Source: Chloroflexota bacterium
GTDB taxonomy: Bacteria > Chloroflexota > Dormibacteria > Dormibacterales > Dormibacteraceae
Direction: 5' to 3'
NCBI GenBank assembly: GCA_005882115.1
Contig: VBEG01000046.1
Location: 1 to 41,076, forward strand
Length of the DNA stretch: 41,076 bases
Every line of letters starts with the position of its first letter. The stretch's first letter is position 1. The notes below the pieces were generated by a model. That model was given only the letters and a program-made list of their open reading frames with translations, was not told where the DNA came from and made no database searches. The position numbers and the translations under genes are program-made. This document shows positions 4,816 to 22,990 of the stretch, piece after piece.

Positions 4816-4893
4816 TGCTCTCCTTCCGGTATACGGTAGGGATTGTTTAAGAAGCCACTCGTCCCAACGATTGGCAGACGTTTAGAACAAAGA

Positions 4894-4916: not shown

Positions 4917-4946
4917 CACAGCGATGCTAGGCGTCGAGGTGTGCGC

Positions 4947-7842: not shown

Positions 7843-9145
7843 CCGCGATCTCGCGCGCGACTTGGTCTTCGTCAGCGGTCAGCAGCCGTCCGCCGCGCAC
7901 GACGGCTCGACCGTTGACGATCACGGTTTGAGCCCGAGCCGGCGGCGCGAGCGCCAGACCGGCAAGAAGGTCCTTGATTCCCGCGTGAGCCAGGTCGTCG
8001 ACGCGGAAACACACGACGTCCGCGCATTTGCCGGGCTCGAGGGTGCCGCAGTCATCTCGACCCAGGCATTCCGCGCCGCCCTTGGTGGCGAGGCGCCACG
8101 CGGTGCGCGCGTCCAGCGCCTGCGGCGAGGCGTTGCGCACCCGGGCCAGGAGCAACGCCTGGTGCGCCTCCATCGCGAGGTTTGCGTCTTCGTTGCTGGC
8201 CGAGCCGTCGACGCCGAGACCCACTCGCGCGCCCGCGCGGACCAGGTCTTCGACCCTGCACGCGCCCGCGCCCAGGCGCATGTTGCTCGACGGGCAGTGC
8301 GCCACGCCGGTGTGGACCTCCGCGATGCGGTCGACCTCGGCGTCGCTCAGGTGGATCGCATGCGCGTACCAGACGTCATCGCCCGTCCAGCCCAGGTCCT
8401 CCATCAGCTCGAAAGGGCGCATGCCGAACTTCTCGACGCAGAACCGCTCCTCGTCCAGCGTCTCCGCCAGGTGCGTGTGCAGCCGGACCTCGTGCCGTCG
8501 TGCGAGTTCCGCTGAGTCGCGCATCAGCTGCGGCGTGACCGAGAAGGGAGAGCACGGCGCGACCACGACCCGGCACATCGAGCCGGGCCTGGGATCGTGG
8601 TGGCGCGCGATGACCGCCTCGGTGTGGGCGAGGATGTCGTCCTCGTTCTCCACGACTGAATCCGGAGGCAGCCCACCCTGCGACTCGCCGAGCGACATGG
8701 AGCCGCGGCACGGATGAAAGCGCAGGCCCAGCTCCCGCGCCGCATCGACGAGCGCCTCGAAGATGCCAGGTCGCCGATGCGGGAAGACGTAGTGGTGATC
8801 CGTCGACAGCGTGCAGCCCGAGAGCAGCAAATTCGCTATGGCGGCGCGGGCAGCGACACGCACCGTGTCGGCGTCGATGCGCGCCCACACCGGGTACAGG
8901 GCGCGCAGCCACTCGAACAACGTGCCGTCGGGCACATAGCCTCGCGTCGCCCACTGATACATGTGGTCGTGAGCGTTGACGAGGCCGGGCATGGCGAGGC
9001 AGTTGGGCTCGTCGATCACCTCGTCGGCGGGCGGCGGCGGACCCGATCCGATCTCGGCGATCATCCCGTCGCGCGCGAGCACCCAGCCGTTATCGATCTC
9101 CTGGCTGCCTGTGAACAGCAGCCCCGCCTTGAGGAGAAGGGTCAA
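7817..9145 (-). CDS. 8-oxoguanine deaminase-like amidohydrolase
   Basis: The 442-residue protein belongs to the ATZ/TRZ-type amidohydrolases and resembles 8-oxoguanine deaminases, which turn 8-oxoguanine into urate and ammonia. Metal and catalytic residues are His59 and His61 (NAHDHMYQ), His223/His225/Glu228 (HTHLAE), His262/His265 (AHAIHL) and Asp313 (GVDGSASNED). The LFEWLRALYPVWARID block is typical of that subgroup. Guanine or another aminopurine is an alternative substrate. It is the last gene of the adenine-to-allantoin operon; the TTG start (9145-9143) overlaps the xdhA stop as TTGA. A urate-forming activity fits next to urate oxidase, and no separate guanine deaminase was seen. Confidence 0.82.
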   Translation of the reverse strand: MTLLLKAGLLFTGSQEIDNGWVLARDGMIAEIGSGPPPPADEVIDEPNCLAMPGLVNAHDHMYQWATRGYVPDGTLFEWLRALYPVWARIDADTVRVAARAAIANLLLSGCTLSTDHHYVFPHRRPGIFEALVDAARELGLRFHPCRGSMSLGESQGGLPPDSVVENEDDILAHTEAVIARHHDPRPGSMCRVVVAPCSPFSVTPQLMRDSAELARRHEVRLHTHLAETLDEERFCVEKFGMRPFELMEDLGWTGDDVWYAHAIHLSDAEVDRIAEVHTGVAHCPSSNMRLGAGACRVEDLVRAGARVGLGVDGSASNEDANLAMEAHQALLLARVRNASPQALDARTAWRLATKGGAECLGRDDCGTLEPGKCADVVCFRVDDLAHAGIKDLLAGLALAPPARAQTVIVNGRAVVRGGRLLTADEDQVAREIAATSRRLAG

Positions 9146-11430
9146 AGGGTGAGGTCGTGCGGCCGCACCGGTACGCGCCTGATGTCCCGGCCCGTGGCTG
9201 CCCGGATCGCGGCGACGATCGCCGGGCCGGACGAGATCGTCGGTGGTTCCCCCACGCCCTTCAGCCCGTAAGGAGAGTTGGGGTCGCCGAGCTCAAGGAT
9301 GTCCATCCGCAGCGGCGGCATGTCGAGGATCGTCGGCAGCAGATAGTCGGTGAACGACGCGTTGCGGATCACGCCGTCCTGAACCTGGATCTCTTCCATG
9401 ACCGCCAGGCCGAGGCCCTGGGCAGCCCCGCCCTCCAGCTGGCCCTGCACGGCGAGCGGATTGATCGCCTTGCCCACATCCTGCGCGGTCGCGAGCTCGA
9501 CGACCTTGACCAGTCCGAGCTCGGTGTCGACGTCGACCACGGCCCGATGCGCGGCGAAGGCGTACTGCATGTGGGCGTCGGCCTGGCCGGTCTCGGGATC
9601 GAGGCGATGCGTGGCGCGCGGGTGAAACTCGCGCGTCTCCTCGATCACCGCGTCACCCAGGAGCGTGGCCAGCGGAACGATCTGCCTGCCGTCTCCGCCT
9701 ACGACGTTGTCGTTCTCGATGCGCAGCTCGCTCGCCGGATGCAGCTCCGACTGAGCCAACCCGAGGACCCGCTGGCACACCGCTTCGGCGGCGGCCTTGA
9801 CCGCGCCTCCCGTGATGTAGGTCTGACGGGAGGCGGACGAAGAGCCTGCCGAGCCGACTCTCGTGTCGGCGTTGAGGACCACGATGTCGTTGACGCCCAG
9901 CTCGCTGCCGGCGATCTGGGCCTGCACCATCACCGTACCCTGCCCGACCTCGGCCGCGGCGGTATGCACCTCTACGCGGGGCCTTCCATCGATCACTGAT
10001 AGCCGCACGCGCGCGGTCGAGTGATCGTCGAAGCCTTCGGAGTAACCGATGTTCTTGAAACCGACGGCGTAGCCGATTCCGCGCTTCACGCCTTCGCCGT
10101 GGGTGGTGTTCGAGACGCCACCGGGCATGGCCGTGAGGTCGGCGGGCCCTACCGCCCCTCCCTTGCCCTCCCCGTAAACGGGGAGGGGCCTGGAGACGTT
10201 GGCGGGGAGGGGCATGGAGGACACTCGGGAGAGGAGTTCGGCGACTGGGACTGGGCCGTCGATTTTCTGGCCGGTGATCATCTCCGTGCCCGTTTCCATC
10301 GCGTTGCGGATGCGCAGCTCGACCGGGTCCATGCCCAACGCCGCGGCCAGCTTGTCCATCTGCGCCTCATGCGCATAGCAGTTCTGGACTGAACCGAATC
10401 CGCGCATCGCGCCGCAGGGCGGGTTGTTCGAGTACGCGACGATGCCATCGATCGTCGCGTTCGGACAGCGATAGGGCCCGACCGCAAAACACGAGGCGTT
10501 GGCGATCACCGCGGTCGAGCTCGACGCGTACGCGCCGCCGTCGAGCAGGATCCGCGCCCTGACATAGACAAGCATGCCGTCGGTGTTGGCTCCGTGCTCA
10601 TAGCTCAGGCGGCCCGGGTGTCGATGCACGTGCCCGACAAACGATTCGGGTCGCGAGTACGAGATCTTGACCGGGCGGCCGGTCTTAAGCGCCAGCAGGC
10701 AAGCGTGCGCCTGCATGGACAGGTCCTCGCGCGCGCCGAAGGCGCCGCCAATGCCGGCCATCGTGAGCCTGACCTTCTCGGGCTGCAGAGCGAGGATGTT
10801 CGCGAGCTGCTGCTGGTCGACGTGCAGCCACTGGGTCGCGATGTAGAGGTCGACTCCACCTTCGGCATCCGGAACCGCGAGCCCGGATTCCGGTCCGAGC
10901 GGCGCCTGGTCCTGCATGCCGATCTCGTACTCGCCACGGACCACGACATCGGCCCGCGCCACCTGGTCGCCGTGCCTGATCTTCACGTGGCGCGTCACAT
11001 TCCCGTCAGGGTGAAGCCGCGGTGCGTCCGGCCTGAGCGCGTCCTCGGCTTGCGTCACCGGACGCAAGACCTCGTATTCGACGCGCACCTTCTGCGTGGC
11101 ACGTCTTGCCTGCTCGGGATGGTCGGCCGCGACCAGCGCGACCGCCTCGCCCCCGTAGCGGACAAAGTCGAACGCGAGCACCGGCTGATCCTGGATCTCG
11201 AGGCCATAGAGCTTCATGCCTGGCACGTCCTCGTGAGTGAGCACCGCGTGAACGCCGGGCATCGCACGCGCTTCCGATGTGTCGATCGACGTGATCCGCG
11301 CGTAGGGATGCGGGCTGCGCACCGTCGAGCCCCACAGCATGTGTTCGGCATGAAGGTCGGACGAATAGGCGAATGTGCCGCGGACCTTGGATGGGCCGTC
11401 GACCCGCTGGACGCTTTCGCCGACCCTCAT
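9142..11430 (-). CDS. xdhA: xanthine dehydrogenase, molybdenum-binding subunit
   Basis: This large subunit hydroxylates hypoxanthine and xanthine to urate at a molybdopterin centre. It has 762 residues. The N-terminal domain (VQRVDGPSKVRGTFAYSSDL) and the molybdopterin-binding domain are complete, including GIGGAFGAREDL, GAMRGFGSVQNC and AAEVGQGTVMVQAQIA. The catalytic Glu728 lies in GVGEPPTISSGPA. Residues of about 403-430 are Pro/Gly-rich (PLPANVSRPLPVYGEGKGG) and are encoded by a palindromic element inserted in frame. The ATG at 11430 overlaps the stop of the iron-sulfur subunit as ATGA. Neighbouring urate, HIU and OHCU genes make xanthine the natural substrate. Confidence 0.88.
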   Translation of the reverse strand: MRVGESVQRVDGPSKVRGTFAYSSDLHAEHMLWGSTVRSPHPYARITSIDTSEARAMPGVHAVLTHEDVPGMKLYGLEIQDQPVLAFDFVRYGGEAVALVAADHPEQARRATQKVRVEYEVLRPVTQAEDALRPDAPRLHPDGNVTRHVKIRHGDQVARADVVVRGEYEIGMQDQAPLGPESGLAVPDAEGGVDLYIATQWLHVDQQQLANILALQPEKVRLTMAGIGGAFGAREDLSMQAHACLLALKTGRPVKISYSRPESFVGHVHRHPGRLSYEHGANTDGMLVYVRARILLDGGAYASSSTAVIANASCFAVGPYRCPNATIDGIVAYSNNPPCGAMRGFGSVQNCYAHEAQMDKLAAALGMDPVELRIRNAMETGTEMITGQKIDGPVPVAELLSRVSSMPLPANVSRPLPVYGEGKGGAVGPADLTAMPGGVSNTTHGEGVKRGIGYAVGFKNIGYSEGFDDHSTARVRLSVIDGRPRVEVHTAAAEVGQGTVMVQAQIAGSELGVNDIVVLNADTRVGSAGSSSASRQTYITGGAVKAAAEAVCQRVLGLAQSELHPASELRIENDNVVGGDGRQIVPLATLLGDAVIEETREFHPRATHRLDPETGQADAHMQYAFAAHRAVVDVDTELGLVKVVELATAQDVGKAINPLAVQGQLEGGAAQGLGLAVMEEIQVQDGVIRNASFTDYLLPTILDMPPLRMDILELGDPNSPYGLKGVGEPPTISSGPAIVAAIRAATGRDIRRVPVRPHDLTL
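10141..10220. repeat. in-frame palindromic element inside xdhA
   Basis: The core is a perfect palindrome: CCCTCCCCGT (10166-10175), AA, then ACGGGGAGGG (10178-10187). A second GGCGGGGAGGGG follows at 10201-10212, and GGCGG/CCGCC arms lie just before. In the reading frame of xdhA it encodes PLPANVSRPLPVYGEGKGG. This is low-complexity and foreign to the enzyme family, yet the frame is kept. The core resembles the CCCC-A-A-GGGG palindromes at 1861 and 11901. Confidence 0.6.
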
Positions 11431-11870
11431 CGCGCCGCCATGTTCACGGCCTCGATGATCTTCGCGTAGCCGGTGCAGCGGCAGACATTGCCCGCCAGCG
11501 CCTCGCGGATCTGCGCGTCGGAGGGCTGCGGGACCCGCCGCAGCAGATCGTGCGTGGCGACGATCAAACCCGGCGTGCAGAAGCCGCACTGGACCGCGCC
11601 TGCATCGACGAACGCCTGTTGGACGCCGGCTGCGTCGACGCCCTCGACGGTCACGACCTCCCGGCCGTTCGCTTGGCCTCCCAGGACGAGGCAGGCGCAC
11701 ACGAGCGAGCCGTCAAGGTAAACAGAGCACGAGCCGCACTCGCCCTGCTCGCACGCGTTCTTGGAGCCATACAGGCCGAATCTTTCACGGAGCACATAGA
11801 GCAGGCTCTCCCCCGCCCACACGTTTTCAGCGACCCGTGTGTGGCCGTTGACGGTGCAGGCGATCCTCAA
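11427..11870 (-). CDS. xdhC: xanthine dehydrogenase, [2Fe-2S] subunit
   Basis: This electron-transfer subunit carries electrons from the molybdenum site towards FAD. It has 147 residues. The plant-ferredoxin-type cluster uses Cys40, Cys45, Cys48 and Cys60 (CEQGECGSCSVYLDG...C). The second cluster uses Cys95, Cys98, Cys130 and Cys132 (CGFCTPG...CRCTGY). I start it at the TTG 11870-11868, which overlaps the FAD-subunit stop as TTGA and places the first residues (LRIACTVNGH) where the family begins. An ATG at 11933 would add 21 residues encoded by a palindromic repeat and is likely to be a false start. Confidence 0.88.
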   Translation of the reverse strand: MRIACTVNGHTRVAENVWAGESLLYVLRERFGLYGSKNACEQGECGSCSVYLDGSLVCACLVLGGQANGREVVTVEGVDAAGVQQAFVDAGAVQCGFCTPGLIVATHDLLRRVPQPSDAQIREALAGNVCRCTGYAKIIEAVNMAAR

Positions 11871-12760
11871 AGCCCCTCCGGCGCGCTGCGCGCGCCACCG
11901 CCCCACAAGTGGGGAGGAGTTGCCCAGGCCCACGCAAGGCAGCGACGCGACATGACCGCGAGCGCATGCCGGCGATAAGCGGCGGTGCCGCGGACATCGT
12001 CGATCGGCTTGGCGGCCGCTGCGACCAGCTCGCCGAAGCGGCTCAGGGTCGCATCACTGGGAGGTCGCCGCCCATCCCAGTCGAGCTCACCCGCAATGAA
12101 GGCCTCCGCGTCGACCGCGCGCAGAGGGGTCGGCCCCGCCGAGCCGATTCCCGTCCCGACTCGCCGCCGCGCCGGGTCGAGGGCCAGCGCGAAGGAGCAG
12201 ACGGCGATGACCATGGCGTTACGGGTGCCGACCTTGGAGAACTGCTGCGGCCCCGGCGCCGGCTCGACCAGAAACGCCGCGATCAGCTCGTCCTGGCGCA
12301 TCGTGTGGCGCTTGGGCCCGGTGAAGAACTCGCGGACCGGGACTCGGCGCGTTCCCGACGTGGAGGCGAGCTCGACTTCCGCGTCCGCCGCGAGGAGCGG
12401 CGGATGAGCGTCGCCGGCCGGCGAGGCGGTTCCGAGGTTGCCGCCGACCGTGCCGCGGTTCCGAATCTGCGGCGAGCCGACGGTACGTGACGCGATAGCC
12501 AGCCCCGGCAGCCGGTCGCCCAGCTCGTCGATGAGCCGCGTGTAGCTCACCCCAGCGCCGATGCGCAGCACGCCATCATCGGTCCCCCACTCCGTCAATT
12601 CGCGGATCGGGGTCAGGTCCATGACCGTCTCGGGCCGGCGGTGGTCCAGGTTGATCTCGACCATGACGTCGGTGCCGCCCGCGATGGGGACCGCCTCGGG
12701 GTGCGCGGCCTTCATCGCCAGGGCCTCCTCCCATGTCGCCGGCTGGAGGAACTCCATCAC
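11867..12760 (-). CDS. xdhB: xanthine dehydrogenase, FAD-binding subunit
   Basis: This CoxM/XdhB-type subunit binds FAD and passes electrons to NAD+ or another acceptor. The 297-residue protein has the two FAD loops PIAGGTDVM (residues 25-33) and TVGGNLGTASPAGD (104-117). The last 18 or so residues (PPHLWGGGARSAPEGL) are encoded by a palindromic repeat and are not family sequence; the native end is probably near VMSRRCLAWAW. The repeat supplies the stop, which still overlaps the next start (TTGA). The GTG start at 12760 overlaps the urate oxidase stop as GTGA, with an ATG three bases later. Confidence 0.88.
   Translation of the reverse strand: MMEFLQPATWEEALAMKAAHPEAVPIAGGTDVMVEINLDHRRPETVMDLTPIRELTEWGTDDGVLRIGAGVSYTRLIDELGDRLPGLAIASRTVGSPQIRNRGTVGGNLGTASPAGDAHPPLLAADAEVELASTSGTRRVPVREFFTGPKRHTMRQDELIAAFLVEPAPGPQQFSKVGTRNAMVIAVCSFALALDPARRRVGTGIGSAGPTPLRAVDAEAFIAGELDWDGRRPPSDATLSRFGELVAAAAKPIDDVRGTAAYRRHALAVMSRRCLAWAWATPPHLWGGGARSAPEGL
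11871..11922. repeat. two-hairpin palindromic repeat, copy C, in the 3' end of xdhB
   Basis: On the plus strand it reads GCCCCTCC, then hairpin GGCGCGC-TGC-GCGCGCC (11879-11895), then the palindrome CCCCAC-AA-GTGGGG (11901-11914), ending in AGGAGTT. Outer arms CCTCC and GGAGG can also pair, giving a cloverleaf-like shape. It aligns over its length with the element between hpt and codA (1837-1883). Here it lies inside coding sequence and gives xdhB a foreign C-terminal tail. Confidence 0.62.
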
Positions 12761-13608
12761 CAGGCCATGGGAGCCTCGCGCGCGTCGTCGCGGGTGATCG
12801 TGCCCTCGATCAATCCATACGGCCGGTCGGACGCGTAGAAGACCTCGTTGTCATTCGCCATCCCAAACGGCGAAAGGTCGACCACGAAATGGTGCTTGTT
12901 CGGCATCGTGATCCGCACCTCGGCGACTTCCGGACGCGCCTCGAGTGCAGCCTTGCCCATCGCGTAGAGCGTCTGCTGCAGGGAGAGGCTGTGCTTCGAA
13001 GCGAAGGTCTCGATGAGCAGGCGACGCACTTCCCCAAATGAATCGGCCCAATCGATCTGGGTATCGCGGTACCGCCACCTGGCCGTCATCGACGTCGCCA
13101 TGATCCGATCGCGGGTTTCGGGCAGCGTGGTGAAGCGGTCCTTGATGTAGCCGTGGAACTCGGAACCGGTGGATTTGAGGACGACCAGGTCCGCGACGCC
13201 GGCGACGACCCACGTGCCGTCATCGGTGCAAGTGACCGCGGCAAGTCGCTTCTCGGAACCTGCGCTGACGAAGGCGTGGTCGTGGACGCGGGACCACGGT
13301 TGTTCCTCGATCGCCACCCGCGCCCGGTAGACGGACGCGAACTCGCCGACAAAGTGACGCGCAAGCCGGATGGCGAAGTCTTCGATCTCGCCCATCGGTT
13401 CGTGAGCGAAGGCGAAGATGGTGTTCTTCTGCGTATCGGTCGGCACCACCTTGCTGTTGTCGCCCGTGAGGTGGGTGTCGGCGAAGTCGCCCGCGAGTGC
13501 GATGCTGACGTTCAGGTCTTTGATCTCATGCGTCCGGCCTTTCTTGGTGACACGCACGACATGGGTCTCCGACTTCCCGTACTGGTTGTCGCCAAGGACG
13601 ATCGTCAT
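12757..13608 (-). CDS. uox: urate oxidase (uricase)
   Basis: This cofactor-free enzyme oxidises urate to 5-hydroxyisourate and hydrogen peroxide. The 283-residue protein shows the family's landmarks: the N-terminal lysine in NQYGKSETHVVRV (Lys12), the catalytic Thr57-Asp58 in VVPTDTQKNTI, and the C-terminal MPNKHHFVVDLSPF block. The ATG at 13608 overlaps the HIU hydrolase stop as ATGA, and the 3' end overlaps xdhB as GTGA. A longer open frame upstream is only the shadow of the HIU hydrolase and OHCU decarboxylase genes. No catalase was seen nearby to deal with the peroxide. Confidence 0.94.
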   Translation of the reverse strand: MTIVLGDNQYGKSETHVVRVTKKGRTHEIKDLNVSIALAGDFADTHLTGDNSKVVPTDTQKNTIFAFAHEPMGEIEDFAIRLARHFVGEFASVYRARVAIEEQPWSRVHDHAFVSAGSEKRLAAVTCTDDGTWVVAGVADLVVLKSTGSEFHGYIKDRFTTLPETRDRIMATSMTARWRYRDTQIDWADSFGEVRRLLIETFASKHSLSLQQTLYAMGKAALEARPEVAEVRITMPNKHHFVVDLSPFGMANDNEVFYASDRPYGLIEGTITRDDAREAPMAW

Positions 13609-13934
13609 ATGCCTTTGTAGGTCGTGTACCCGTAGGCGCTGAGCAGCAGCGGCACGTGGAGATGGCCGCCCTCGAATGTGAAGACGACGGAGACCGAGGG
13701 ATAGAAGGCGTCCAGGCCGGAGCGCTCGAAGTACGGCTTCGTGTCGAACTCGAGGCGGTACTCGGCGGGATCGAGCGCCTCCTCTGTCAGCTCGCGAACC
13801 CTCCCCTCGGCGTCGGTCTCGGTTTGCGCGACCTCCTTCCAGTCGCCGTCGGGCTCGCGACGATGCAGGGCCACGGCAAGGCCCGCCGCCGGGGTGCCGC
13901 GCATCGTGTCGAGCACGTGGGTCGAGATGCTCAC
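13605..13934 (-). CDS. uraH: 5-hydroxyisourate hydrolase (transthyretin-like)
   Basis: It hydrolyses 5-hydroxyisourate to OHCU, the step after uricase. The 109-residue protein has the usual N-terminal STHVLDTMRGTPAAGLAV and a C-terminal HVPLLLSAYGYTTYKGI. HIU hydrolases normally end in the tetrapeptide YRGS, part of the active site; here it is YKGI. The last codon (ATA) lies in the stretch that also forms the uricase start (ATATGA), so the overlap may have shaped it. The GTG start at 13934 overlaps the OHCU decarboxylase stop as GTGA. Confidence 0.9.
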   Translation of the reverse strand: MSISTHVLDTMRGTPAAGLAVALHRREPDGDWKEVAQTETDAEGRVRELTEEALDPAEYRLEFDTKPYFERSGLDAFYPSVSVVFTFEGGHLHVPLLLSAYGYTTYKGI

Positions 13935-14425
13935 TCGGAGAGGGCCTTCTCCAGGCGCAGGCGGGCAATCCGGCGCTGCTCCCGCGCCGCCTCCTGCAGC
14001 TCGGTCGCCGAGTCGTTGTTCATGCGCCGCCGGAGCTCCGCCAGGATCTCCACCGCGCTGCGTCCGCTGGCCGCGATGAGAAAAACGTGGCCGAAACGCT
14101 CTTCATACCGCCGATTCTCCACCGCGAGCGCGCTCAGCGTGTCGGGCGAGGCGTCCATGACCCGGCGCTGCTCGCCTTCGGACGCCACCGGCGCATGTCC
14201 GCCACGCTCCCCGATCCTCGGGTGCGCCGCGAACGCATCCATCCATTCGCGATCGCTGAGCTCCGCGGAGGCGATATCCGCCATGGCCAGGAGGGACTCG
14301 AGGTCCTCGTAGGGCCTGTCCGCCGCGACGCGCTCCGCCCAGGTTCGATTCGCAAGACACCCGTAGAGGACGTTCTCCGCGTCAGCCTGCGCCAGGTCGT
14401 TGAACCACGGGAGGCGATCACTCAA
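13931..14425 (-). CDS. uraD: OHCU decarboxylase
   Basis: 2-Oxo-4-hydroxy-4-carboxy-5-ureidoimidazoline decarboxylase makes the S enantiomer of allantoin and CO2. The 164-residue protein has the catalytic His68 in AAHPRIGERGG, the SEGEQRRV helix, and FLIAASGRSAVEIL near residues 114-127, all standard for the family. The TTG start at 14425 overlaps the adenine deaminase stop by eight bases (TTGAGTGA). It is encoded just before HIU hydrolase and uricase, so all three urate-to-allantoin steps are consecutive. Confidence 0.93.
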   Translation of the reverse strand: MSDRLPWFNDLAQADAENVLYGCLANRTWAERVAADRPYEDLESLLAMADIASAELSDREWMDAFAAHPRIGERGGHAPVASEGEQRRVMDASPDTLSALAVENRRYEERFGHVFLIAASGRSAVEILAELRRRMNNDSATELQEAAREQRRIARLRLEKALSE

Positions 14426-16088
14426 TCCCCAGGGGCACCAGCTCGAAACGGCTCACGTCGACCAACCCGCGGTCGGTGATCTTCAGCTCAGGGATCACCG
14501 ACAGCGCAAGGAAACTCAGGGTCATGAACGGCGAGGCCATCGTCACACCCATCGCGTTGAGGCGGCGCTCCATCGAGCGCAGCCGCTCGTGGACCTCGGT
14601 CAGCGGGCGGTCGCTCATCAAGCCCGCGATGGGCAGCGGCAGCTCCTCGACCGCCCGCCCACCTTCTGCGACGACGATGCCGCCGCCGATCTCGGCGAGC
14701 CTCATCGCGCAAGCGGCCATATCGCGGTCGTCGACGCCGAGAATGACGATGTTGTGGGCGTCGTGCGCCACGGTCGACGCGAACGCTCCGCGCTTCAGGC
14801 CGACGTTGGTCGCGAACCCTAGGCCGACGCGCCCGCTCGCGTGGTGCCTTTCGACGACCGCGATCTTGACCAAATCGCGGGCCGGGTCCGCGACGACGCA
14901 GCCCTCCTTTACCCTCGGTTCGACCACCTCGACTCCGGTCAGGAGTTGCGCCGGGATCACGCGCATGACGCGGATCTTCTTCGGGCCGGCGGGGATCCGG
15001 AAGGAGGTGGCGTCGAGCGGCGCGAGGCTCACGGTCTGCCGCACCCATTCCGGCACGTCGACCTTGACGTGGCGGGGCGGCGCGCCGCGCTTCAAGACCT
15101 GACGCGGGTGGAACGACTTCAAGTCGTCGAGCACGAGGATGTCAGCCTGGTAACCGGGAGCGATCGCGCCGAGCTGCCACAGCCGGTGATAGGTGGCCGG
15201 GTTGATCGTCGCCATCACGAGCGCGTCCTCGGGGCTGATCCCCTCCTCGACCGCGACGCGGACCATCTGGTTGATGTGGCCCTGCTCGACGATGAAGTCG
15301 GGCTCCCGGTCGTCGGTGCAGAAAGCACAGCGGTCGGTGCCGTGTTGCTTGACCAGCGGGAGGAGGTCGCGCAGGTTGCGGGCGATCGAAGCCTCGCGGA
15401 GGAGGACCCACATGCCGAGGCGCCGCTTCTCCAGGGCTTCTTCGAAGGTGATCGCCTCGTGGTCGGAGCCGATGCCCGCGGCGATGTAGGCGTTGAGCGC
15501 GGGGCCGCGAACTCCGGGCGCGTGGCCGTCCACGTGGTTGGTCAGGCCGGTCGTCAGCTTCGCCAGCTCAGCCGCGTCGCCGGCGATGACGCCGGGGAAG
15601 TTCATCATCTCAGCGATGCCGATCGTGCGGCTCCGGCGCAGCAAGCTCTCGATGTCCCCCGTCGTGAACGGCCGGCGGGGTGACTCAAAGTGCGAGGCCG
15701 GTACGCACGACGAGGCCATCACGAAAACATCGAGCGGAATGTCCTCACAGCAGTCGAGGAGCCAGTGGATCCCGTCGGTGCCGAGCACGTTGGCGATCTC
15801 GTGGGGATCAGCGACCACGGCGGTCGTGCCATGAGCCAGAACCGCGCGCGCGAACTCGTCGACCATGAGCTTGGACGACTCGATGTGCATGTGGGCGTCG
15901 ACAAACCCGGGTACTAGATAGGCGCCCGCGACGTCGAGCGTTTGACGGCCGTCGTATTTGCCGAGACCGACGACGTGGCCATGCTGGACCGCGACGTCGA
16001 CGTCGAGCCACTCCTTGGTGAAGACCGAGAGGACATGGCCGCCGGACAGCACAAGGTCGGCCGGCTCGTCACCGCGCGCGACCGCCAT
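14418..16088 (-). CDS. ade: adenine deaminase
   Basis: It deaminates adenine to hypoxanthine and ammonia. The 556-residue protein has the AdeC layout: VPGFVDAHMHIESSKL metal site, HGTTAVVADPHEIANVLG, CAFCTDDREPDFI, and the C-terminal domain with GLKRGAFASTVAHDAHNIVILG and GGGIVVAEGG. The start at ATG 16088 (MAVARGDEPADLVLSGG) matches the usual beginning; a farther ATG at 16223 would run into the divergent molybdenum-hydroxylase gene. It is the first gene of the eight-gene purine operon. The gap to the divergent gene is 33 bases, with a TAAAGT box on the minus strand (16117-16112) as a possible -10. Confidence 0.9.
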   Translation of the reverse strand: MAVARGDEPADLVLSGGHVLSVFTKEWLDVDVAVQHGHVVGLGKYDGRQTLDVAGAYLVPGFVDAHMHIESSKLMVDEFARAVLAHGTTAVVADPHEIANVLGTDGIHWLLDCCEDIPLDVFVMASSCVPASHFESPRRPFTTGDIESLLRRSRTIGIAEMMNFPGVIAGDAAELAKLTTGLTNHVDGHAPGVRGPALNAYIAAGIGSDHEAITFEEALEKRRLGMWVLLREASIARNLRDLLPLVKQHGTDRCAFCTDDREPDFIVEQGHINQMVRVAVEEGISPEDALVMATINPATYHRLWQLGAIAPGYQADILVLDDLKSFHPRQVLKRGAPPRHVKVDVPEWVRQTVSLAPLDATSFRIPAGPKKIRVMRVIPAQLLTGVEVVEPRVKEGCVVADPARDLVKIAVVERHHASGRVGLGFATNVGLKRGAFASTVAHDAHNIVILGVDDRDMAACAMRLAEIGGGIVVAEGGRAVEELPLPIAGLMSDRPLTEVHERLRSMERRLNAMGVTMASPFMTLSFLALSVIPELKITDRGLVDVSRFELVPLGIE

Positions 16089-16121
16089 CCAGTGTGCGTC
16101 GATGACGGAGACTTTAGCGAC

Positions 16122-18350
16122 ATGGCAGAGGGTCCGATAGGCAGGAGCCTGAAGCGGGTCGAGGACCCTAGGCTTTTGCGCGGGGAGGGGCGGTTTGTCG
16201 ACGATCTCGCCGCCCCTCTGCACGTCGCGTTCGTGCGCAGCCCGGTCGCCAGCGGCAGGCTGAGAAGCATCGACGCGGCGGCGTCCCGCGTAACCGTGTT
16301 CACGGCGGCGGACATCGAGGGCTCATGCCTGCCGCTGGCGGTGCACCTGACGACCCCTGGCGCGGTCTCACCGGCGCGACCGATCCTCGCCATCGATCGC
16401 GTGCGCTTCGTCGGCGAGATGATCGCTGCGGTCGTCGCCGAGAACAGGTACGCCGCCGCCGACGCAGTCGAGCTGATCCAACCGGAGATCGATCCGCTGC
16501 CCGCTGTGGTCGGATTCGAGGAGGCGATGTCTGGCGGCGCGCCTCTCGTGCATGAAGTCGTGGCCGGAAATCTCTACTTCACCGGCCGGCGCAGATACGG
16601 CAACGTGGAAGCTGGTTTCGGGCGCTCTGATGTCGTCATCAAGGGACAGGTCACGCATCCCCGCGTCGCCGCCGCGCCTATCGAGACGCGGGGGGTGATG
16701 GCGCAGCCGGACGGCGATGGTGTGATTGTCTGGACATCGACGCAAGTGCCGCACCTCGTGGCTGATGCGATTGCCGAATGTCTGGGTCTCGATCGGTCGC
16801 GCGTGCGCGTGGTCGCGGCCGACGTCGGGGGAGGATTTGGCGGCAAGGCGCAGGTCTACCCCGAGGAGATCCTGCTGGCATGGATCGCGCGGCGCATGAA
16901 TGCGTCCGTGAAGTGGGTCGAGACTCGCTCGGAGCACATGCAGGCGGCCGGCCATGCGCGCGACCAGCGCGCCGAGTTCAGCGCCGCGGTGCGCAAGGAT
17001 GGTCGCGTCCTGGGGCTGCGCGCAAAGGTGCTCTCGAGCATCGGCGCCTACGGCATCCGTCCGTTCGGTCCGCTGCTCGACCCGCTCGGCACCGCCGGCC
17101 TGATCCCTGGCCCCTACGACATCCGCGACTACGAGTACGAGACGTACGCCGTCGCCACCAACAAGTCCCCCGAAGGCCCGTATCGCGGGGTCGGAATGGT
17201 CACGGCGGTCCTGGTCCACGAACGGCTTATGGACCTCATCGCCTCCAGGCTGTCTCTCGACCCGGCCGACGTGCGACGCGTGAACTTCGTCAAGGCGGCA
17301 CAGATGCCTTACATGTCGGTCACGCATCATCGCTATGACTCCGGCGACTACACCGAGGCGCTGGATGCGGCGCTGGCCAGTTTCGATTACGCGTCCGCAC
17401 GTGACGCGCAGCAGAGAGGGCGCACGGCCGGGCGCACACTCGGGGTCGGACTTGCCTCGTACGTCGAGTACACGGGCGCGGGGTCCTCGACCTTCAAGGG
17501 ACGCGGGATGACCGACATCCCGGGCGTCGACACGGCCCGGGCCTGGCTTGCGGAGGATGGTCGCATCCACCTCCAGACGAGCAGCCCGGGGATGGGCCAG
17601 GGCTCGCACACGACGTTCGCGCAGGTCGCGGCGGCCGGCCTGGGCGTGGAGCCTGAGAGAATCGTGGTCGAGCAGACCGACACCGCAAGAGTCGGAGGCG
17701 GGACGGGCTCGTTCATGAGCCGCGGCTCGGTCACCGCGGCGACGAGCACCTTTCGCGCCGCGCGTTTGCTCCGCGATGCAATCCTCGAGACGGCCTCCGA
17801 CAGGTTCAATCAACCCATCGACCGGATAGCAATCGACGGCGTCACCCTCTCCAGGCTCGCCGCCGACAACGGCGAGCTCGACATCTCGGTTACTTATGAC
17901 GCGGTGCAGGCCGCTCACCCATACGCCACGCATGCGTGCCTCGTCGAGGTCGACAAGATGACTGGCGAAGTGACCGTGCTGCGCTATGTCGTCGCCGAAG
18001 ACTGCGGCGTGCTGATCAACCCGATGATCGTCGAGGGACAGGTGGCCGGCGGCGTCGCGCAGGCGTTGGGAGCGGCCCTGTTCGAGGAGGTCGCCTACGG
18101 TCCGGACGGCGAGCTGCGCAGCGGAACGTTTCTCGACTACCTCATCCCGAGCATCGGCGAGGTGCTGACGGTGCAGATCACCCATCTCGTGACGCCCTCG
18201 ACCGTGCACGAGCTGGGCACCAAAGGCGCCGGCGAGGGCGGCACGATCGGCGGGACCGCCGCCATCGCGAATGCGATCGCGGACGCGCTCTCTCTCCACG
18301 ACGTGACTTTGCCGCTGTCGCCGGATCGCGTCGTTTCGCTGCTGCGGTGA
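16122..18350 (+). CDS. orphan molybdenum hydroxylase large subunit (CoxL/aldehyde oxidase family)
   Basis: The 742-residue protein is a molybdopterin-binding large subunit of the xanthine dehydrogenase/CO dehydrogenase family. It has the N-terminal IGRSLKRVEDPRLLRGEGRFVDD block, ADVGGGFGGKAQVYPEE, GMGQGSHTTFAQVAA and the catalytic Glu705 in GAGEGGTIGGTA. The loop that carries AYxCSFR in true CO dehydrogenase reads GPYRGVGM, so CO oxidation is unlikely. No medium (FAD) or small (2Fe-2S) subunit gene lies in this operon; it may borrow those of the divergent xanthine dehydrogenase. It leads a five-gene operon with a CoA ligase and a crotonase, pointing to hydroxylation of an aromatic or heterocyclic substrate. 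Confidence 0.85.
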   Translation: MAEGPIGRSLKRVEDPRLLRGEGRFVDDLAAPLHVAFVRSPVASGRLRSIDAAASRVTVFTAADIEGSCLPLAVHLTTPGAVSPARPILAIDRVRFVGEMIAAVVAENRYAAADAVELIQPEIDPLPAVVGFEEAMSGGAPLVHEVVAGNLYFTGRRRYGNVEAGFGRSDVVIKGQVTHPRVAAAPIETRGVMAQPDGDGVIVWTSTQVPHLVADAIAECLGLDRSRVRVVAADVGGGFGGKAQVYPEEILLAWIARRMNASVKWVETRSEHMQAAGHARDQRAEFSAAVRKDGRVLGLRAKVLSSIGAYGIRPFGPLLDPLGTAGLIPGPYDIRDYEYETYAVATNKSPEGPYRGVGMVTAVLVHERLMDLIASRLSLDPADVRRVNFVKAAQMPYMSVTHHRYDSGDYTEALDAALASFDYASARDAQQRGRTAGRTLGVGLASYVEYTGAGSSTFKGRGMTDIPGVDTARAWLAEDGRIHLQTSSPGMGQGSHTTFAQVAAAGLGVEPERIVVEQTDTARVGGGTGSFMSRGSVTAATSTFRAARLLRDAILETASDRFNQPIDRIAIDGVTLSRLAADNGELDISVTYDAVQAAHPYATHACLVEVDKMTGEVTVLRYVVAEDCGVLINPMIVEGQVAGGVAQALGAALFEEVAYGPDGELRSGTFLDYLIPSIGEVLTVQITHLVTPSTVHELGTKGAGEGGTIGGTAAIANAIADALSLHDVTLPLSPDRVVSLLR

Positions 18351-19768
18351 GAGAGCCGACGCCGTACCGGCCCCTGAGTTACCTGGAGTGGAACGCGGCC
18401 CGCCGCGGCTCTAGCCTCGCGATTTGGGACGACGGTCGGGAGATCACGTTCGAGGAACTGCTGGCTCATGTCCGTCGCATGCAGCTACAGCTCGCTGCAC
18501 GCGGCGTGCGTGAGGGCGACGTCGTGGGCGTGCAGATGGCCAACATCTGGCAGTACGTGGCGCTCGAGCTGGCCATCCCCGACCTGGGCGCCGTGATGCT
18601 GCCGATGCCGATGGGACTAGGCGAGCACGAGATGCGCTGGGTGCAGGAGAAGACACGCCCCGCCCTGGTGATCCGGGATCTGCTCCTCGACTCGGGTGAT
18701 TCGACCATCTCGCCTCGCCCCGCCGATCCCGACCCGGCGCGGATCGTCGAGATCGCGCTCACCTCGGGGACGACGGGGATGCCGAAGCTCGCCTCGCTGT
18801 CCGCCCGCCTCAAGCAGGTGACATTCGAAAGTTTCACGTCGAGGCTCGGGATCACCGAACACGACCGCGTCCTTCCCATGACACCGCTGACCCAGGGCAT
18901 CGGCGGCATGTGCCTTTACTGCTTACGGACCGGCGCGTCCCTGGTCATGCTGCACGAGCCCCACTGGACACCCGAGCACTGCGTCGGCACGGCGATGAGG
19001 TCGAGGGCTACCGTGATGGTCGGCGTGCCGACCAACGTGATCCGAATGCTCAACCATCCACTTCCGGCCGCCACGTCCCTGCGAGCGGTCGCCGTCGCGG
19101 GCGCGCCGCTGCCGCCTGAGATCGCGGAACGTTGGGAGACCCCGACCGGGATTCCCATCTCCAGCTTCTATGGCTCGATGGACGCTGGCCAGCTGGCGGT
19201 GGCGAGCCCGTCCGATCCGCAGGCAGCCCGTTGGACGACTGTGGGACGGCCGCACGATCGCGCCGAATGGAAGATCGACCAGGGCCTAGCAGCCGACACG
19301 GTCGGCCGCGGGATTGGAGAAATATGTATGCGCGGCGACCTGGTCCAGGGTCGCTATTGGGGCGAGGAGTCGGGCCCTTACTCCCCCGATGGCTGGGCAC
19401 ATATGGGCGACCTCGGCTTCGTCGACGAATCGGGCTTCCTGCACGTCGTCGGCCGGGTGAAGGACATCATCATCCGAGGCGGTTCCAACATCAATCCCTA
19501 CGAGGTGGAGTCGATGTTGCGCTTGCATCCCGAAGTGATCGACGCATGCGTCGTCGGCCGGCCGCACCCTGAGCTGGGCGAGGTGCCCGTCGCATTTGTC
19601 GTCGCGCGCTCGGATATCTCGAAGGCGATCGTCGATCGATTGATGCGGGAGCAGGGCCTGGCGCACTACAAGTGGCCCGTGGCGGTGCATCGCGTGGAGG
19701 AGCTGCCGCTTTCCGGACCCGGCAAGGTAAACCGCAAAGCGTTGCAAGAGCATGCGCTCGCGTTGTAA
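18347..19768 (+). CDS. AMP-dependent acyl-CoA synthetase/ligase (ANL superfamily)
   Basis: It activates a carboxylic acid to the acyl-AMP and probably the CoA thioester. The 473-residue protein has the ATP-binding motif ALTSGTTGMPK, the GWAHMGDLGFVDESGFLHVVGRVKD hinge region, RGGSNINPYEVE, and the catalytic lysine in SGPGKVNRKAL near the end. It is a little shorter than the usual 500-550 residues, mostly before the P-loop. The GTG start at 18347 overlaps the preceding stop as GTGA. The substrate is unknown; context suggests the acid made or modified by the molybdenum hydroxylase. Confidence 0.85.
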   Translation: MREPTPYRPLSYLEWNAARRGSSLAIWDDGREITFEELLAHVRRMQLQLAARGVREGDVVGVQMANIWQYVALELAIPDLGAVMLPMPMGLGEHEMRWVQEKTRPALVIRDLLLDSGDSTISPRPADPDPARIVEIALTSGTTGMPKLASLSARLKQVTFESFTSRLGITEHDRVLPMTPLTQGIGGMCLYCLRTGASLVMLHEPHWTPEHCVGTAMRSRATVMVGVPTNVIRMLNHPLPAATSLRAVAVAGAPLPPEIAERWETPTGIPISSFYGSMDAGQLAVASPSDPQAARWTTVGRPHDRAEWKIDQGLAADTVGRGIGEICMRGDLVQGRYWGEESGPYSPDGWAHMGDLGFVDESGFLHVVGRVKDIIIRGGSNINPYEVESMLRLHPEVIDACVVGRPHPELGEVPVAFVVARSDISKAIVDRLMREQGLAHYKWPVAVHRVEELPLSGPGKVNRKALQEHALAL

Positions 19769-20543
19769 CGACATCGAGGTGGCCTGGCACGAGGCGGGAC
19801 GAGGCGACCCGTTGATCCTGATCCACGGCCTCGCGGACGACCACCGCGCATGGCGCCGCGCTGTGCCCGACCTCATGCTGCACCATCGCCTTCTCATGTA
19901 CGACCTGCGCGGCCACGGGGAGACGAGCCTGGGCGCCGCGGATGGAACACTTCGCCAGCTCGGCGACGACCTCGTCACGCTGCTGGACGCGATCGAGGTC
20001 GAACGTGCTGACATCGCCGGCTTCTCACTCGGCGGGACAATCGCGATGCGCGTGGCAATCGACCATCCGGACAGGGCCCGGGGTATCGCGCTGGTCGCCA
20101 CGTCGAGCCGCGTCGGCCACAGCGCTGCCGGCTGGTACCGCGAGCGGGTGGAGATGGTCGAACGAAACGATCCCCATCTCCGCGACACTCTCGACAAGGA
20201 CACGGCCGATGTATACGCGGAGTCGCCCTCTGAGCTCGAGGGCGGACTCTTGATCAGACGGCAGTCCACCGAAGATCCGCGCGGCTACGGCAACGCGTGC
20301 GCCGCTATGGCGGGTCTCAACGCGAATCCTCTCGACCCGGAGCTGCCGCGCATCAGCGCGCCGACCTTGATCGTGGCTTCCGAGCTCGATCGGCACTGCC
20401 CGCCGAAAGCCGCGGAGGTCATCGCTTCTGGCATCAGGGGCAGCAAGCTGGAGGTCATGAGGGGCGCCGGCCACCCGATCCCGGTGGAAAAACCGCGCGA
20501 GCTCGCAAGCTCGATCAACTCATTCCTCGCCGAACTTGGCTGA
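19752..20543 (+). CDS. alpha/beta-fold hydrolase
   Basis: The 263-residue protein has the oxyanion segment LILIHGLADDHRAW, the nucleophile elbow GFSLGG with Ser92, an acidic residue in ASELDRHCP and the histidine in GAGHPIPVEKP, so the catalytic triad is complete. The overall pattern resembles the PcaD/RutD-like lactone or amide hydrolases. It overlaps the end of the ligase gene by 17 bases and the next gene by eight. In this operon it could open a lactone or lactam ring or hydrolyse a thioester; the substrate is not readable. Confidence 0.85.
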   Translation: MRSRCNDIEVAWHEAGRGDPLILIHGLADDHRAWRRAVPDLMLHHRLLMYDLRGHGETSLGAADGTLRQLGDDLVTLLDAIEVERADIAGFSLGGTIAMRVAIDHPDRARGIALVATSSRVGHSAAGWYRERVEMVERNDPHLRDTLDKDTADVYAESPSELEGGLLIRRQSTEDPRGYGNACAAMAGLNANPLDPELPRISAPTLIVASELDRHCPPKAAEVIASGIRGSKLEVMRGAGHPIPVEKPRELASSINSFLAELG

Positions 20544-21297
20544 CACGCTCCTCCGCGAGTGGGGGCCGCGCGACGTGCTTACGCTCACCCTCAACCGCCC
20601 GGAGCGCCGCAACGCGCTGGACCCTGAGCTGCTCGCGGCCCTCGCTGCGGCGTTGCAGGCCGACGGGGAGCGCGCGGGCGCTGTCATTCTTCGCGGTGCA
20701 GGCAGCGAGGCGTTCTCCGCCGGTTACGACCTGTCCCGCCTGACGGGAACGGCAGCCGACCTTGACGCGGACGGCGTCATCGGCGAAGCCGCCAGCGCGC
20801 TGCGGCAGTGTCCCTCGCCGGTGATTGCCCGACTGCAGGGCCACTGCCACGGAGCCGCGGTGGAGCTGGCGCTGAACTGCGACCTCCGCATCGCGTCGCC
20901 CGCGCTCCGCATGTCGGTGCCGGCGGTGGGCCTCGGAGTGGTCTATCGCTACCAGTTCGTCGCGCGCCTGGTCCAGACGTGCGGCCTGGCGCGGACAGCC
21001 GACCTGCTGCTCGGGATGTCCCAGCTCGACGGCGACCAGGCGCACACCTGGGGGATCGTGACCGAGGTCGTGCCTGAATCGGAGATCGATGCACGAGTGC
21101 AGGCGGTGGCCGACAAGCTCGCATCATCGCCGCGCGCCGCGGTGCGCGGGACGAAGGCAAGCCTGAATCTGCTCGGGTCGCGCGGCATCGCGGCGGAGGA
21201 CCTCGCAGCCGCAAGGCAGCTTCGTGTGACGGCGGCCTCGAGCCCCGAACGCCAGGAGGCGCTGAGGCGGCGGCAGAAGAAAGTGTCGGGCAATTGA
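20536..21297 (+). CDS. crotonase-fold protein (enoyl-CoA hydratase/isomerase family)
   Basis: The 253-residue protein has the crotonase framework: LNRPERRNALDPELL, the first oxyanion-hole segment EAFSAGYDL, and GHCHGAAVELALNCDLRIAS with the first acidic residue. The second catalytic glutamate of true hydratases (PExTLG) is replaced by alanine (PAVGLGVV), and the following GAGGTQRL is replaced by YRYQFVARL. A simple hydratase reaction is therefore doubtful, and isomerase, hydrolase or ring-opening activity is possible. The TTG start at 20536 lies eight bases inside the hydrolase gene. Confidence 0.82.
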   Translation: MADTLLREWGPRDVLTLTLNRPERRNALDPELLAALAAALQADGERAGAVILRGAGSEAFSAGYDLSRLTGTAADLDADGVIGEAASALRQCPSPVIARLQGHCHGAAVELALNCDLRIASPALRMSVPAVGLGVVYRYQFVARLVQTCGLARTADLLLGMSQLDGDQAHTWGIVTEVVPESEIDARVQAVADKLASSPRAAVRGTKASLNLLGSRGIAAEDLAAARQLRVTAASSPERQEALRRRQKKVSGN

Positions 21298-22223
21298 CAC
21301 CGTTCGACGTCAGCGTTGGCATAAGCCCGCGCCAGTCGTTCGAGAGTTGGGGATCCTTTGTCGCCCAGCTCGAAGCCGAAGGAGTGCAGCGTGTCTGGGT
21401 CATCGATTCGCAGCTCGCGATGAAGGACGTCTACGCCGGCCTCGTGGTGGCCGCGCTGAACACGTCTCGGATCGGTCTAGGTACCGGTGTCACGAATGCC
21501 GTCACCCGGCACCCGACCGTGACGGCCAACGCGATCGCCGCCGTCGCTGAGATCTCCCACGGCCGCGCGATCCTCGGCTTGGGCGCGGGCGACTCGGCCC
21601 TCTACGGTGTGGGGCTGAAGCCGCAGAAGGTGGCCGAGGTCGAAGAGGCGATCGACTTCTTTCGCTCTCACATCGACCAGAGCGTCCCGATTTACCTGGC
21701 CGTCTCCCAGGAGCGAATGTGCCAGCTTGCAGGGCGAAAGGCGGACGGCGCGATCGTGATGGGGCCCGCGCAGCCGGACATGGTCCGCCAGCAGGTCAAG
21801 TGGATCGAGGCCGGCTTGCGGGCCGCTGAGCGCGGTCGCTCGCTATTCGAGATTGGGCTCATGGCCACGACAGCCGGCGAGGTCGAGGATGTGCGCTCAT
21901 GGGCCTCCACCCAGGCTCGGCTCCTGAGTCACCATAAGGGGCTTCCCGAAAGCCTGGCTCGGTTTCAAAGCGAAATTCAGCGCAGCGCCGAGACGTACGA
22001 CTACACCGAGCACCTGTCGACCCACGCGGAGCACTCCGGCGCGGTTTCAGACGACCTCGTCCGCGCGCTGGCCGTGGTCGGCACGCCCGAGGAGTGCGCG
22101 TCGCGGCTTCGAGAGCTGCAGCGAACGGGAATCGACGCGCTCATCTTTCCCCTGGCGGGCCGCAACCGCGCCGAGCGGTGGCGGAAGCTTCGGGATGAGG
22201 TCCTGAGTCAGATCATCGTGTAG
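21294..22223 (+). CDS. LLM-class (F420-type) oxidoreductase
   Basis: The 309-residue protein is a luciferase-like monooxygenase-superfamily protein of the F420-dependent type, such as methylenetetrahydromethanopterin reductase and glucose-6-phosphate dehydrogenase relatives. Visible family parts are GVQRVWVIDSQL near the start, RIGLGTGVTNAVTRHPTVTANAIAAVAEISHGRAILGLGAGDSA, and AVVGTPEECASRLREL towards the end. The TTG start overlaps the crotonase stop as TTGA. It is the last gene of the molybdenum hydroxylase-ligase operon and overlaps the convergent SDR gene by 16 bases. The cofactor could instead be FMN. Confidence 0.83.
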   Translation: MTPFDVSVGISPRQSFESWGSFVAQLEAEGVQRVWVIDSQLAMKDVYAGLVVAALNTSRIGLGTGVTNAVTRHPTVTANAIAAVAEISHGRAILGLGAGDSALYGVGLKPQKVAEVEEAIDFFRSHIDQSVPIYLAVSQERMCQLAGRKADGAIVMGPAQPDMVRQQVKWIEAGLRAAERGRSLFEIGLMATTAGEVEDVRSWASTQARLLSHHKGLPESLARFQSEIQRSAETYDYTEHLSTHAEHSGAVSDDLVRALAVVGTPEECASRLRELQRTGIDALIFPLAGRNRAERWRKLRDEVLSQIIV

Positions 22224-22990
22224 CCGCCGCTGACCGAGAGCGTCTGGCCCGTGATGTACGAGGCGCGGTCAGAGGCGAGCAGCAGGACGGCGGGAACCAC
22301 ATCGTCGGCCGTGCCAAGGCGGCGGAGTGGATAGCCCTTGGCCGCCTTTTCACGGACCTCGGGCGTGAACTTCTCGGCTTGCTCCGACGACCACACCGAG
22401 TTGCTGCCCGAGGTCTCGGGCGAGCCGACGATCAGTCCCGGACATACCACATTCAAGGTGATGCCGTGCTTTCCAACCTCGCGTGCGATCGACTTGGACA
22501 TCGCGATCACGCTCGCCTTGGTGCCGCTGTAGACGGCCTCGCGCCACTCCCCCATCCGGCCGGCTTCGGAGCCGATGGACACGATCCGGCCGTAGCGGCG
22601 CTCGACCATCTTGTCCAGGACCGCACGGACGCAATTGATGAACCCCCAGACGTCGATCGCGATCTCTCGTTCCCATTCGGCGCGGGGCTTCTCCATGAAG
22701 AGGCGATCGATCGTCCAGCCCGCGCAGTTGACCAGCACGTCGACGCGGCCCATCGAGCTCTCCACGAAATCCACCGTCGATCTGACCGAGTCCCAGTCGG
22801 TGACATCCGTGTGACGCGCGACAATCGTGCCTGAGGGAGCCTCGCGCTCGACCTTCTTGGCCTGCGCGTCGTCCACGTCCGCGATGACTGCGCGCGCTCC
22901 CTCTTTTGCGAACCCCAGCGCGATCGCGCGGCCGAGGTTCGAAGCCCCGCCGGTGACGATGACGATGCGACCGCTGAGACCAAGGTCCAC
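22208..22990 (-). CDS. short-chain dehydrogenase/reductase
   Basis: The 260-residue classical SDR has the nucleotide-binding VTGGASNLGRAIALGF (residues 12-27), VNCAGW, the catalytic serine in SIGSEAGRMG, Tyr and Lys in VYSGTKAS, and the C-terminal YITGQTLSVSGGY. An aspartate after strand 2 (VIADVDD) suggests NAD(H). The start is a GTG at 22990 without a Shine-Dalgarno sequence. It is read alone, after the terminator of the SPFH gene. It may serve the neighbouring convergent CoA-ligase operon as a hydroxyacyl dehydrogenase, but that is only positional. Confidence 0.87.
   Translation of the reverse strand: MDLGLSGRIVIVTGGASNLGRAIALGFAKEGARAVIADVDDAQAKKVEREAPSGTIVARHTDVTDWDSVRSTVDFVESSMGRVDVLVNCAGWTIDRLFMEKPRAEWEREIAIDVWGFINCVRAVLDKMVERRYGRIVSIGSEAGRMGEWREAVYSGTKASVIAMSKSIAREVGKHGITLNVVCPGLIVGSPETSGSNSVWSSEQAEKFTPEVREKAAKGYPLRRLGTADDVVPAVLLLASDRASYITGQTLSVSGGYTMI

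What the first reader, a model, noticed from the sequence alone, without database searches (positions are those of the whole stretch)
16122..22223. Uncharacterised five-gene pathway led by an orphan molybdenum hydroxylase
The operon joins a molybdopterin-binding large subunit, an acyl-CoA/AMP ligase, an alpha/beta hydrolase, an atypical crotonase and an F420-type LLM oxidoreductase, all with overlapping genes. There is no FAD or 2Fe-2S subunit of its own. The active-site loop (GPYRGVGM) rules out typical CO dehydrogenase. The set looks like hydroxylation, CoA activation, ring cleavage and reduction of an aromatic or N-heterocyclic acid. It is divergent from the purine operon by only 33 bases, so the substrate may be purine-related, and the large subunit may borrow XdhB/XdhC. 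I know of no described pathway with this gene set.
Basis: partly seen in the sequence, partly recalled or inferred. Interest (0 to 1): 0.62.

Follow-up and report, generated by a model that had tools for sequence, protein, structure and literature searches.

The report
Six-gene ring-degradation cluster, orphan molybdenum enzyme
Uncultured soil bacteria of the phylum Dormibacterota carry a conserved, undescribed gene cluster that looks built to break down a nitrogen-containing ring compound, probably related to DNA/RNA bases, and its lead molybdenum enzyme lacks its usual electron-passing partner subunits and may borrow them from neighbours.

Summary
Window 16122-22223 encodes, head to tail with overlapping ends, a complete xanthine-oxidase-family molybdenum large subunit, an AMP-forming acyl-CoA ligase, an alpha/beta hydrolase, an atypical crotonase and an F420-type LLM enzyme. 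The order is intact in nine Dormibacterota genomes. A convergent SDR gene (22208-22990) belongs to the set, so it has six genes.

The large subunit is a real orphan: the genome has 11 large subunits but only six FAD and six 2Fe-2S subunits. It is not intrinsically subunit-free: sister genera carry the same ligase, hydrolase, SDR and LLM beside a complete Mo hydroxylase (LLM-FAD-FeS-L).

The surroundings are a nucleobase-catabolism island (cytosine deaminase, NCS1 permease, complete purine route; in relatives also an NCS2 uracil-type permease, a second Mo hydroxylase, an AtzD/barbiturase-family hydrolase and a malonyl-CoA-synthetase-like ligase). The set sits at different ends of this island in two genera.

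Best reading: a pathway for a nucleobase-like N-heterocycle by Mo hydroxylation, F420 redox, hydrolytic opening, CoA activation and crotonase cleavage or decarboxylation, with electron subunits borrowed within the island. Substrate and partner are unproven. I found no described pathway with this set. New variant of a known kind.

The parts
16122..18350 (+). Orphan molybdenum hydroxylase large subunit, 742 aa; MPT loops, YRGVG loop and catalytic Glu (GAGEGG) intact
   Evidence: Pfam PF01315+PF02738+PF20256; alignment and tree
18347..19768 (+). AMP-forming acyl-CoA ligase, 473 aa, both catalytic lysine motifs present; closest to MenE and malonyl-CoA synthetase types
19752..20543 (+). Alpha/beta hydrolase, 263 aa, GFSLGG nucleophile elbow, Asp and His present; PcaD/esterase-like
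20536..21297 (+). Atypical crotonase, 253 aa: Glu110 kept, second catalytic Glu replaced (Ala130), Tyr137 in LGVxY as in methylmalonyl-CoA decarboxylase
21294..22223 (+). LLM-class F420-type oxidoreductase, 309 aa, Mer-like
22208..22990 (-). SDR dehydrogenase, 260 aa, convergent with the LLM gene; sixth member of the set
   Evidence: (BadH-like, below cut-off)
16089..16121 (.). 33-base divergent intergenic region shared with adenine deaminase (33-54 bases in relatives)
9142..12760 (-). Xanthine dehydrogenase L, FeS and FAD subunits; one candidate source of borrowed FeS/FAD subunits
12757..16088 (-). Uricase, OHCU decarboxylase, adenine deaminase (context: purine route)
1884..9145 (.). Context: cytosine deaminase (-), NCS1 permease (+), DUF3830, allantoate amidohydrolase, allantoinase (+), 8-oxoguanine deaminase (-)

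Best explanation
A six-gene catabolic module for a nucleobase-like N-heterocycle (or a ring compound derived from nucleobases). Inferred order: (1) the Mo large subunit hydroxylates a ring carbon next to N, passing electrons to an FeS and a FAD subunit encoded elsewhere in the same island (from xanthine dehydrogenase or from the second Mo hydroxylase); (2) the F420-dependent LLM enzyme reduces or re-oxidises the hydroxylated ring; (3) the Ser-His-Asp hydrolase opens the ring or cleaves an amide or ester; (4) the ligase makes a CoA thioester; (5) the crotonase, which lacks the hydratase's second Glu, decarboxylates or cleaves that thioester; (6) the SDR interconverts an alcohol and a carbonyl. 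Shown: gene set, conservation, intact active sites, orphan status, F420 capacity, island context. Inferred: substrate, step order, subunit borrowing.
For: Set conserved in nine genomes and beside nucleobase genes in each; it sits at the adenine-deaminase/uricase end of the island in one genus and directly after the NCS1 permease, divergent from cytosine deaminase, in another. Related large subunits in Solirubrobacterales lie beside cytosine-deaminase-like genes. YRGVG loop shared with quinoline 2-oxidoreductase. Sister genera couple the same LLM, ligase, hydrolase and SDR to a complete Mo hydroxylase. cofD/cofE above cut-off; LLM model nearest to Mer, Z about 28. Crotonase residues. Six FAD/FeS sets for 11 large subunits.
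Against: In sister genera the pathway genes are not beside nucleobase genes. The island already holds complete purine genes and a candidate oxidative-pyrimidine operon, so the substrate of this third set is not obvious. The crotonase was not found in G020, G023, G029 and G034. One same-genus genome 95% complete (G008) lacks the set. All organisms are uncultured; no expression or enzyme data.
Confidence: 0.42

Rival explanations
1. The module degrades a non-nucleobase aromatic or heterocyclic acid; its place beside nucleobase genes is a neighbourhood effect of a large catabolic island.
For: In other genera the LLM-FAD-FeS-L, ligase, hydrolase and SDR genes lie among unrelated genes. Ligase, hydrolase and SDR resemble aromatic-acid enzymes (MenE, PcaD, BadH).
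Against: Two different positions within the same nucleobase island in two genera.
Confidence: 0.27
2. Oxidative pyrimidine route: the large subunit makes (5-methyl)barbiturate from uracil or thymine, and ligase plus crotonase turn (methyl)malonate into acetyl- or propionyl-CoA.
For: Cytosine deaminase and NCS1 neighbours; malonyl-CoA synthetase-like ligase hits; crotonase shares Glu and Tyr with methylmalonyl-CoA decarboxylase ScpB; the oxidative route ends in urea and malonate or methylmalonate (PMC7662398).
Against: The C60 operon of the same island (uracil-type permease, Mo hydroxylase with own FAD/FeS, AtzD-family hydrolase, malonyl-CoA-synthetase-like ligase) fits that route better, and the six-gene set has no AtzD-family hydrolase. 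LLM and SDR have no role in it.
Confidence: 0.13
3. A purine branch, the large subunit using XdhB/XdhC.
For: 33-54 base divergent junction with the purine operon in one genus.
Against: The purine route to ureidoglycolate is complete without it; in the second genus the set is at the cytosine deaminase/NCS1 end.
Confidence: 0.12
4. The large subunit works without FeS/FAD (non-redox hydration or transhydroxylation) or is no longer catalytic.
For: No dedicated partner subunits.
Against: All Mo-site, MPT and catalytic Glu motifs are conserved, and functionally equivalent relatives have FAD and FeS.
Confidence: 0.06

Closest known systems
Xanthine-oxidase-family N-heterocycle hydroxylases (quinoline 2-oxidoreductase QorL; nicotinate and xanthine dehydrogenases)
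   Same: Domain order, MPT loops, catalytic Glu; YRGVG loop as in QorL
   Different: No own FeS and FAD genes; scores below every NCBIfam equivalog cut-off
Oxidative pyrimidine degradation (uracil dehydrogenase, barbiturase, ureidomalonase)
   Same: Mo hydroxylase logic, cytosine deaminase neighbour, malonyl-CoA-type ligase and decarboxylase-like crotonase
   Different: No AtzD/barbiturase gene in the set; LLM and SDR extra
Rut pyrimidine pathway
   Same: LLM-family enzyme plus alpha/beta hydrolase near a nucleobase permease
   Different: LLM is closest to F420-dependent Mer, not to RutA (Z about 28 against 19); no RutB, RutC or RutF in the set
Methylmalonyl-CoA decarboxylase ScpB (E. coli)
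   Same: First Glu position kept, second Glu absent, LGVxY tyrosine
   Different: 24% identity; far below NF008506 cut-off (107 against 257 bits)
Mer, F420-dependent methylene-H4MPT reductase
   Same: Best sequence and fold match
   Different: 20-26% identity over the fold alignment, far below the equivalog cut-offs; no methanopterin pathway implied

Membership tests
Xanthine-oxidase-family Mo hydroxylase, large subunit | Ald_Xan_dh_C + MoCoBD_1 + MoCoBD_2 domains | tested here: met
   all above Pfam cut-offs
Xanthine-oxidase-family Mo hydroxylase, large subunit | MPT loop GGGFGxK, GQG loop, active-site Glu (GxGE) | tested here: met
   present in the orphan clade (G005 reads GGAFGGK)
Xanthine-oxidase-family Mo hydroxylase, complete enzyme | Cognate 2Fe-2S and FAD subunits encoded with it | tested here: not met
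   six sets for 11 large subunits, none here
Form I CO dehydrogenase | AYRCSFR active-site loop | tested here: not met
   GPYRGVGM here; AYRCSFR is on contig C123
Xanthine dehydrogenase | NCBIfam XdhA/PucD equivalog score | tested here: not met
   346 against 780 and 271 against 784 bits; the adjacent XDH passes PucD (842)
F420-dependent LLM oxidoreductase | Genome encodes F420 biosynthesis | tested here: met
   cofD 275.5>257.5 and cofE 282>181 bits
F420-dependent LLM oxidoreductase | Binds F420 rather than FMN | not testable with these tools
   fold nearest to F420 enzymes but no binding test
Mer (methylene-H4MPT reductase) | Equivalog score | tested here: not met
   130 against 276 and 125 against 349 bits
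Enoyl-CoA hydratase | Two catalytic Glu residues | tested here: not met
   second Glu replaced by Ala130
Methylmalonyl-CoA decarboxylase (NF008506) | Equivalog score | tested here: not met
   107 against 257 bits
Oxidative pyrimidine pathway | AtzD/barbiturase-family hydrolase in the same operon | tested here: not met
   present in most genomes of the genus but in the neighbouring C60-type operon

The most novel reading that the evidence does not exclude
These bacteria run a mix-and-match Mo hydroxylase system: several substrate-specific large subunits without partner genes dock onto a small pool of shared FeS/FAD subunits, and this orphan feeds an undescribed F420- and CoA-dependent route for a nucleobase-like heterocycle.
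Probability: 0.3. Interest if true: 0.65.

Novelty: new variant of a known kind. Interest (0 to 1): 0.45.

Why it matters
Purified Mo hydroxylases of this family work with dedicated FeS and FAD partners (general knowledge); a lineage with 11 large subunits and six partner sets makes subunit sharing directly testable. The set would also link F420 redox chemistry with Mo hydroxylation and CoA chemistry in heterocycle breakdown, and would give a nitrogen-scavenging role to an uncultured soil phylum. The neighbouring operon is a candidate for the uracil dehydrogenase of the oxidative pyrimidine route, for which I know of no assigned gene.

Tried and rejected
CO dehydrogenase: rejected, the loop differs and the true CODH is on another contig. 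The NCBIfam 'CODH group 5' label of the C60 large subunit is not followed either: its loop is PYRGAGR and its neighbours are a uracil-type permease and an AtzD-family hydrolase. RutA-like ring cleavage: LLM is closer to Mer. Fold search with the crotonase model did not discriminate (many crotonases tied at Z 18-20; mean pLDDT only 70). C89-type FAD/FeS as general partner: among the genomes checked it was seen only in G000, G022, G024 and G035, so it cannot serve the other carriers. Plasmid search gave only generic 36-39% large subunits, with own partners in the two records read. Literature searches for the same gene set, for F420 with Mo hydroxylases and for a uracil dehydrogenase gene found no match; the library holds open-licence papers only.

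Full report
What is there. The five genes are real, complete and run head to tail with overlapping ends at 16122-22223. Catalytic motifs are intact: MPT loops and GAGEGG in the large subunit, SGTTGMPK and the C-terminal GPGKVNRK lysine in the ligase, and a GFSLGG serine elbow with Asp and His in the hydrolase (read). The crotonase keeps the first catalytic Glu (Glu110), has Ala where hydratases have the second Glu (Ala130), and shares LGVxY with E. coli methylmalonyl-CoA decarboxylase ScpB. The divergent gap to adenine deaminase is 33 bases.

Where it comes from. The window is contig C80 of a 3.36 Mb draft genome. Named relatives are soil MAGs labelled Chloroflexi or Candidatus Dormiibacterota. 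The five genes are complete and in order in nine genomes, eight of one genus and one of a second genus, with 67-81% identical proteins. The set is patchy: G008 of the same genus lacks it. In a 400-genome sample of the phylum, large subunits over 60% identical occur only in this family.

A sixth gene. The SDR at 22208-22990 is convergent with the LLM gene and overlaps its end in all seven same-genus relatives tabulated. It is 82-87% identical. In sister genera its homologue (67-72%) is adjacent to the LLM gene (G407) or divergent from the ligase (G023, G020). It belongs to the pathway.

Orphan status. The genome has 11 large subunits, six FAD subunits and six FeS subunits; five large subunits have none, though one of these lies at a contig edge. 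A paralogue of the orphan (67%) on contig C89 is also without partners but is divergent from a complete L-FAD-FeS operon, an arrangement repeated in three other Dormibacterota genomes and, at lower identity, in an Actinomycetes MAG. A tree puts the C80 and C89 orphans together (100/100), next to actinobacterial large subunits (90/90), of which the Pseudonocardia one is followed by FAD and FeS genes. In genomes of other genera the LLM homologue heads or adjoins a FAD-FeS-L run, with ligase and hydrolase (51-64%) and SDR near by in the longer contigs (in G407 the Mo subunits precede the LLM gene, the large subunit is cut off in G025, and FAD was not detected in G023). Those large subunits form another clade (100/100) and share the RGVG loop. 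So the pathway is coupled to a full Mo hydroxylase elsewhere, and the missing partners here look like a derived state. Genomes with the set whose FAD genes were typed carry the XDH-type FAD, and C60-type FAD was confirmed in most of them, while the C89-type FAD is rare. Any borrowing would therefore most likely be from XDH or the C60-type enzyme. This is inference.

The island. In G003 and G005 the contigs corresponding to C60 and C80 are continuous. Order: AtzD/barbiturase-family hydrolase; Mo hydroxylase L, FeS, FAD; PF04199 cyclase; malonyl-CoA-synthetase-like ligase (415 bits); DUF4126; NCS2 uracil-type permease (RutG 371 bits); cytosine-deaminase-like genes; NCS1; DUF3830; allantoate amidohydrolase; allantoinase; 8-oxoguanine deaminase; XDH; uricase; OHCU decarboxylase; adenine deaminase; then the six-gene set (minor local differences between the two genomes). 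In G366 (second genus) the set instead follows NCS1 on the same strand with about 60 bases between, divergent from cytosine deaminase, where G022 has the C60-type Mo operon. Two positions in one island argue for a functional link to nucleobase catabolism, not to purines alone. Against this, the sister-genus modules are not in such islands.

Mechanism. F420 synthesis genes are present (cofD, cofE above cut-off) and the LLM model is closest to F420-dependent Mer (Z about 28, against 23 for FGD and 19 for RutA). The likely logic is hydroxylate, reduce or oxidise with F420, hydrolyse, activate with CoA, cleave or decarboxylate, with the SDR handling an alcohol/carbonyl step. The order and substrate are inferred.

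Comparison with the known. No curated NCBIfam equivalog cut-off is met by any of the six proteins in the matches listed. The oxidative pyrimidine route is known biochemically (PMC3758960, PMC7662398); its best candidate in this island is the C60 operon rather than this set. I found no published pathway with these genes.

Verdict. A real, conserved, uncharacterised catabolic module; the orphan claim stands for this genus but not for the pathway as a whole; nucleobase-like substrate likely but not shown.

Noticed in passing
G000:C60 = L141:1444-12116 (G003: L136/L137; G005: L139/L140; G022: L145): Operon with NCS2 uracil-type permease, malonyl-CoA-synthetase-like ligase, PF04199 cyclase and complete Mo hydroxylase, convergent with an AtzD/barbiturase-family hydrolase gene: a candidate gene set for oxidative uracil degradation, including the uracil dehydrogenase. 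NCBIfam would name its large subunit aerobic CO dehydrogenase (1141 bits), although the loop is PYRGAGR.
   Followed up: partly
L141:11001-12116 (-): The AtzD-family protein is closest to a 'ring-opening amidohydrolase' structure (5HY0, 390 bits; from Frankia, from memory), well above cyanuric acid hydrolases (184-284) and barbiturase (205). From memory that Frankia class has no identified substrate, which this operon context might supply.
   Followed up: partly
L039 (G000:C89:16001-36000), also L040-L042: Paralogous orphan large subunit (67%) divergent from GntR and a full Mo hydroxylase, with urea/branched-chain-type ABC transporter, DUF1989 (UAAP2-like), SDR, malonyl-CoA-synthase-like ligase, alpha/beta hydrolase and CynX-type transporter: a second undescribed N-compound locus.
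   Followed up: partly
L078:8382-13051 (G230:C50): Two Mo hydroxylase large subunits in tandem, one like the C89 full-set type and one like the C60 type; no FAD or FeS homologue was detected in the 19 kb fetched.
   Followed up: no
window 35701-36660 (+) and 38521-40017 (+): A Rieske oxygenase with VanA-type C-terminal domain and a second NCS1-family permease further along the window; possibly N- or O-demethylation of a nucleobase-like compound.
   Followed up: no
window 28954-29952 (-): A second LLM-family (Bac_luciferase) gene in the window, not part of the six-gene set; the genome gave 23 first-look LLM candidates.
   Followed up: no
G000:C133 (L085), C48 (L086), C41 edge (L087): Three further Mo hydroxylase large subunits without FAD/FeS neighbours; the C48 one lacks a stretch around the substrate loop that aligns in the others.
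   Followed up: no
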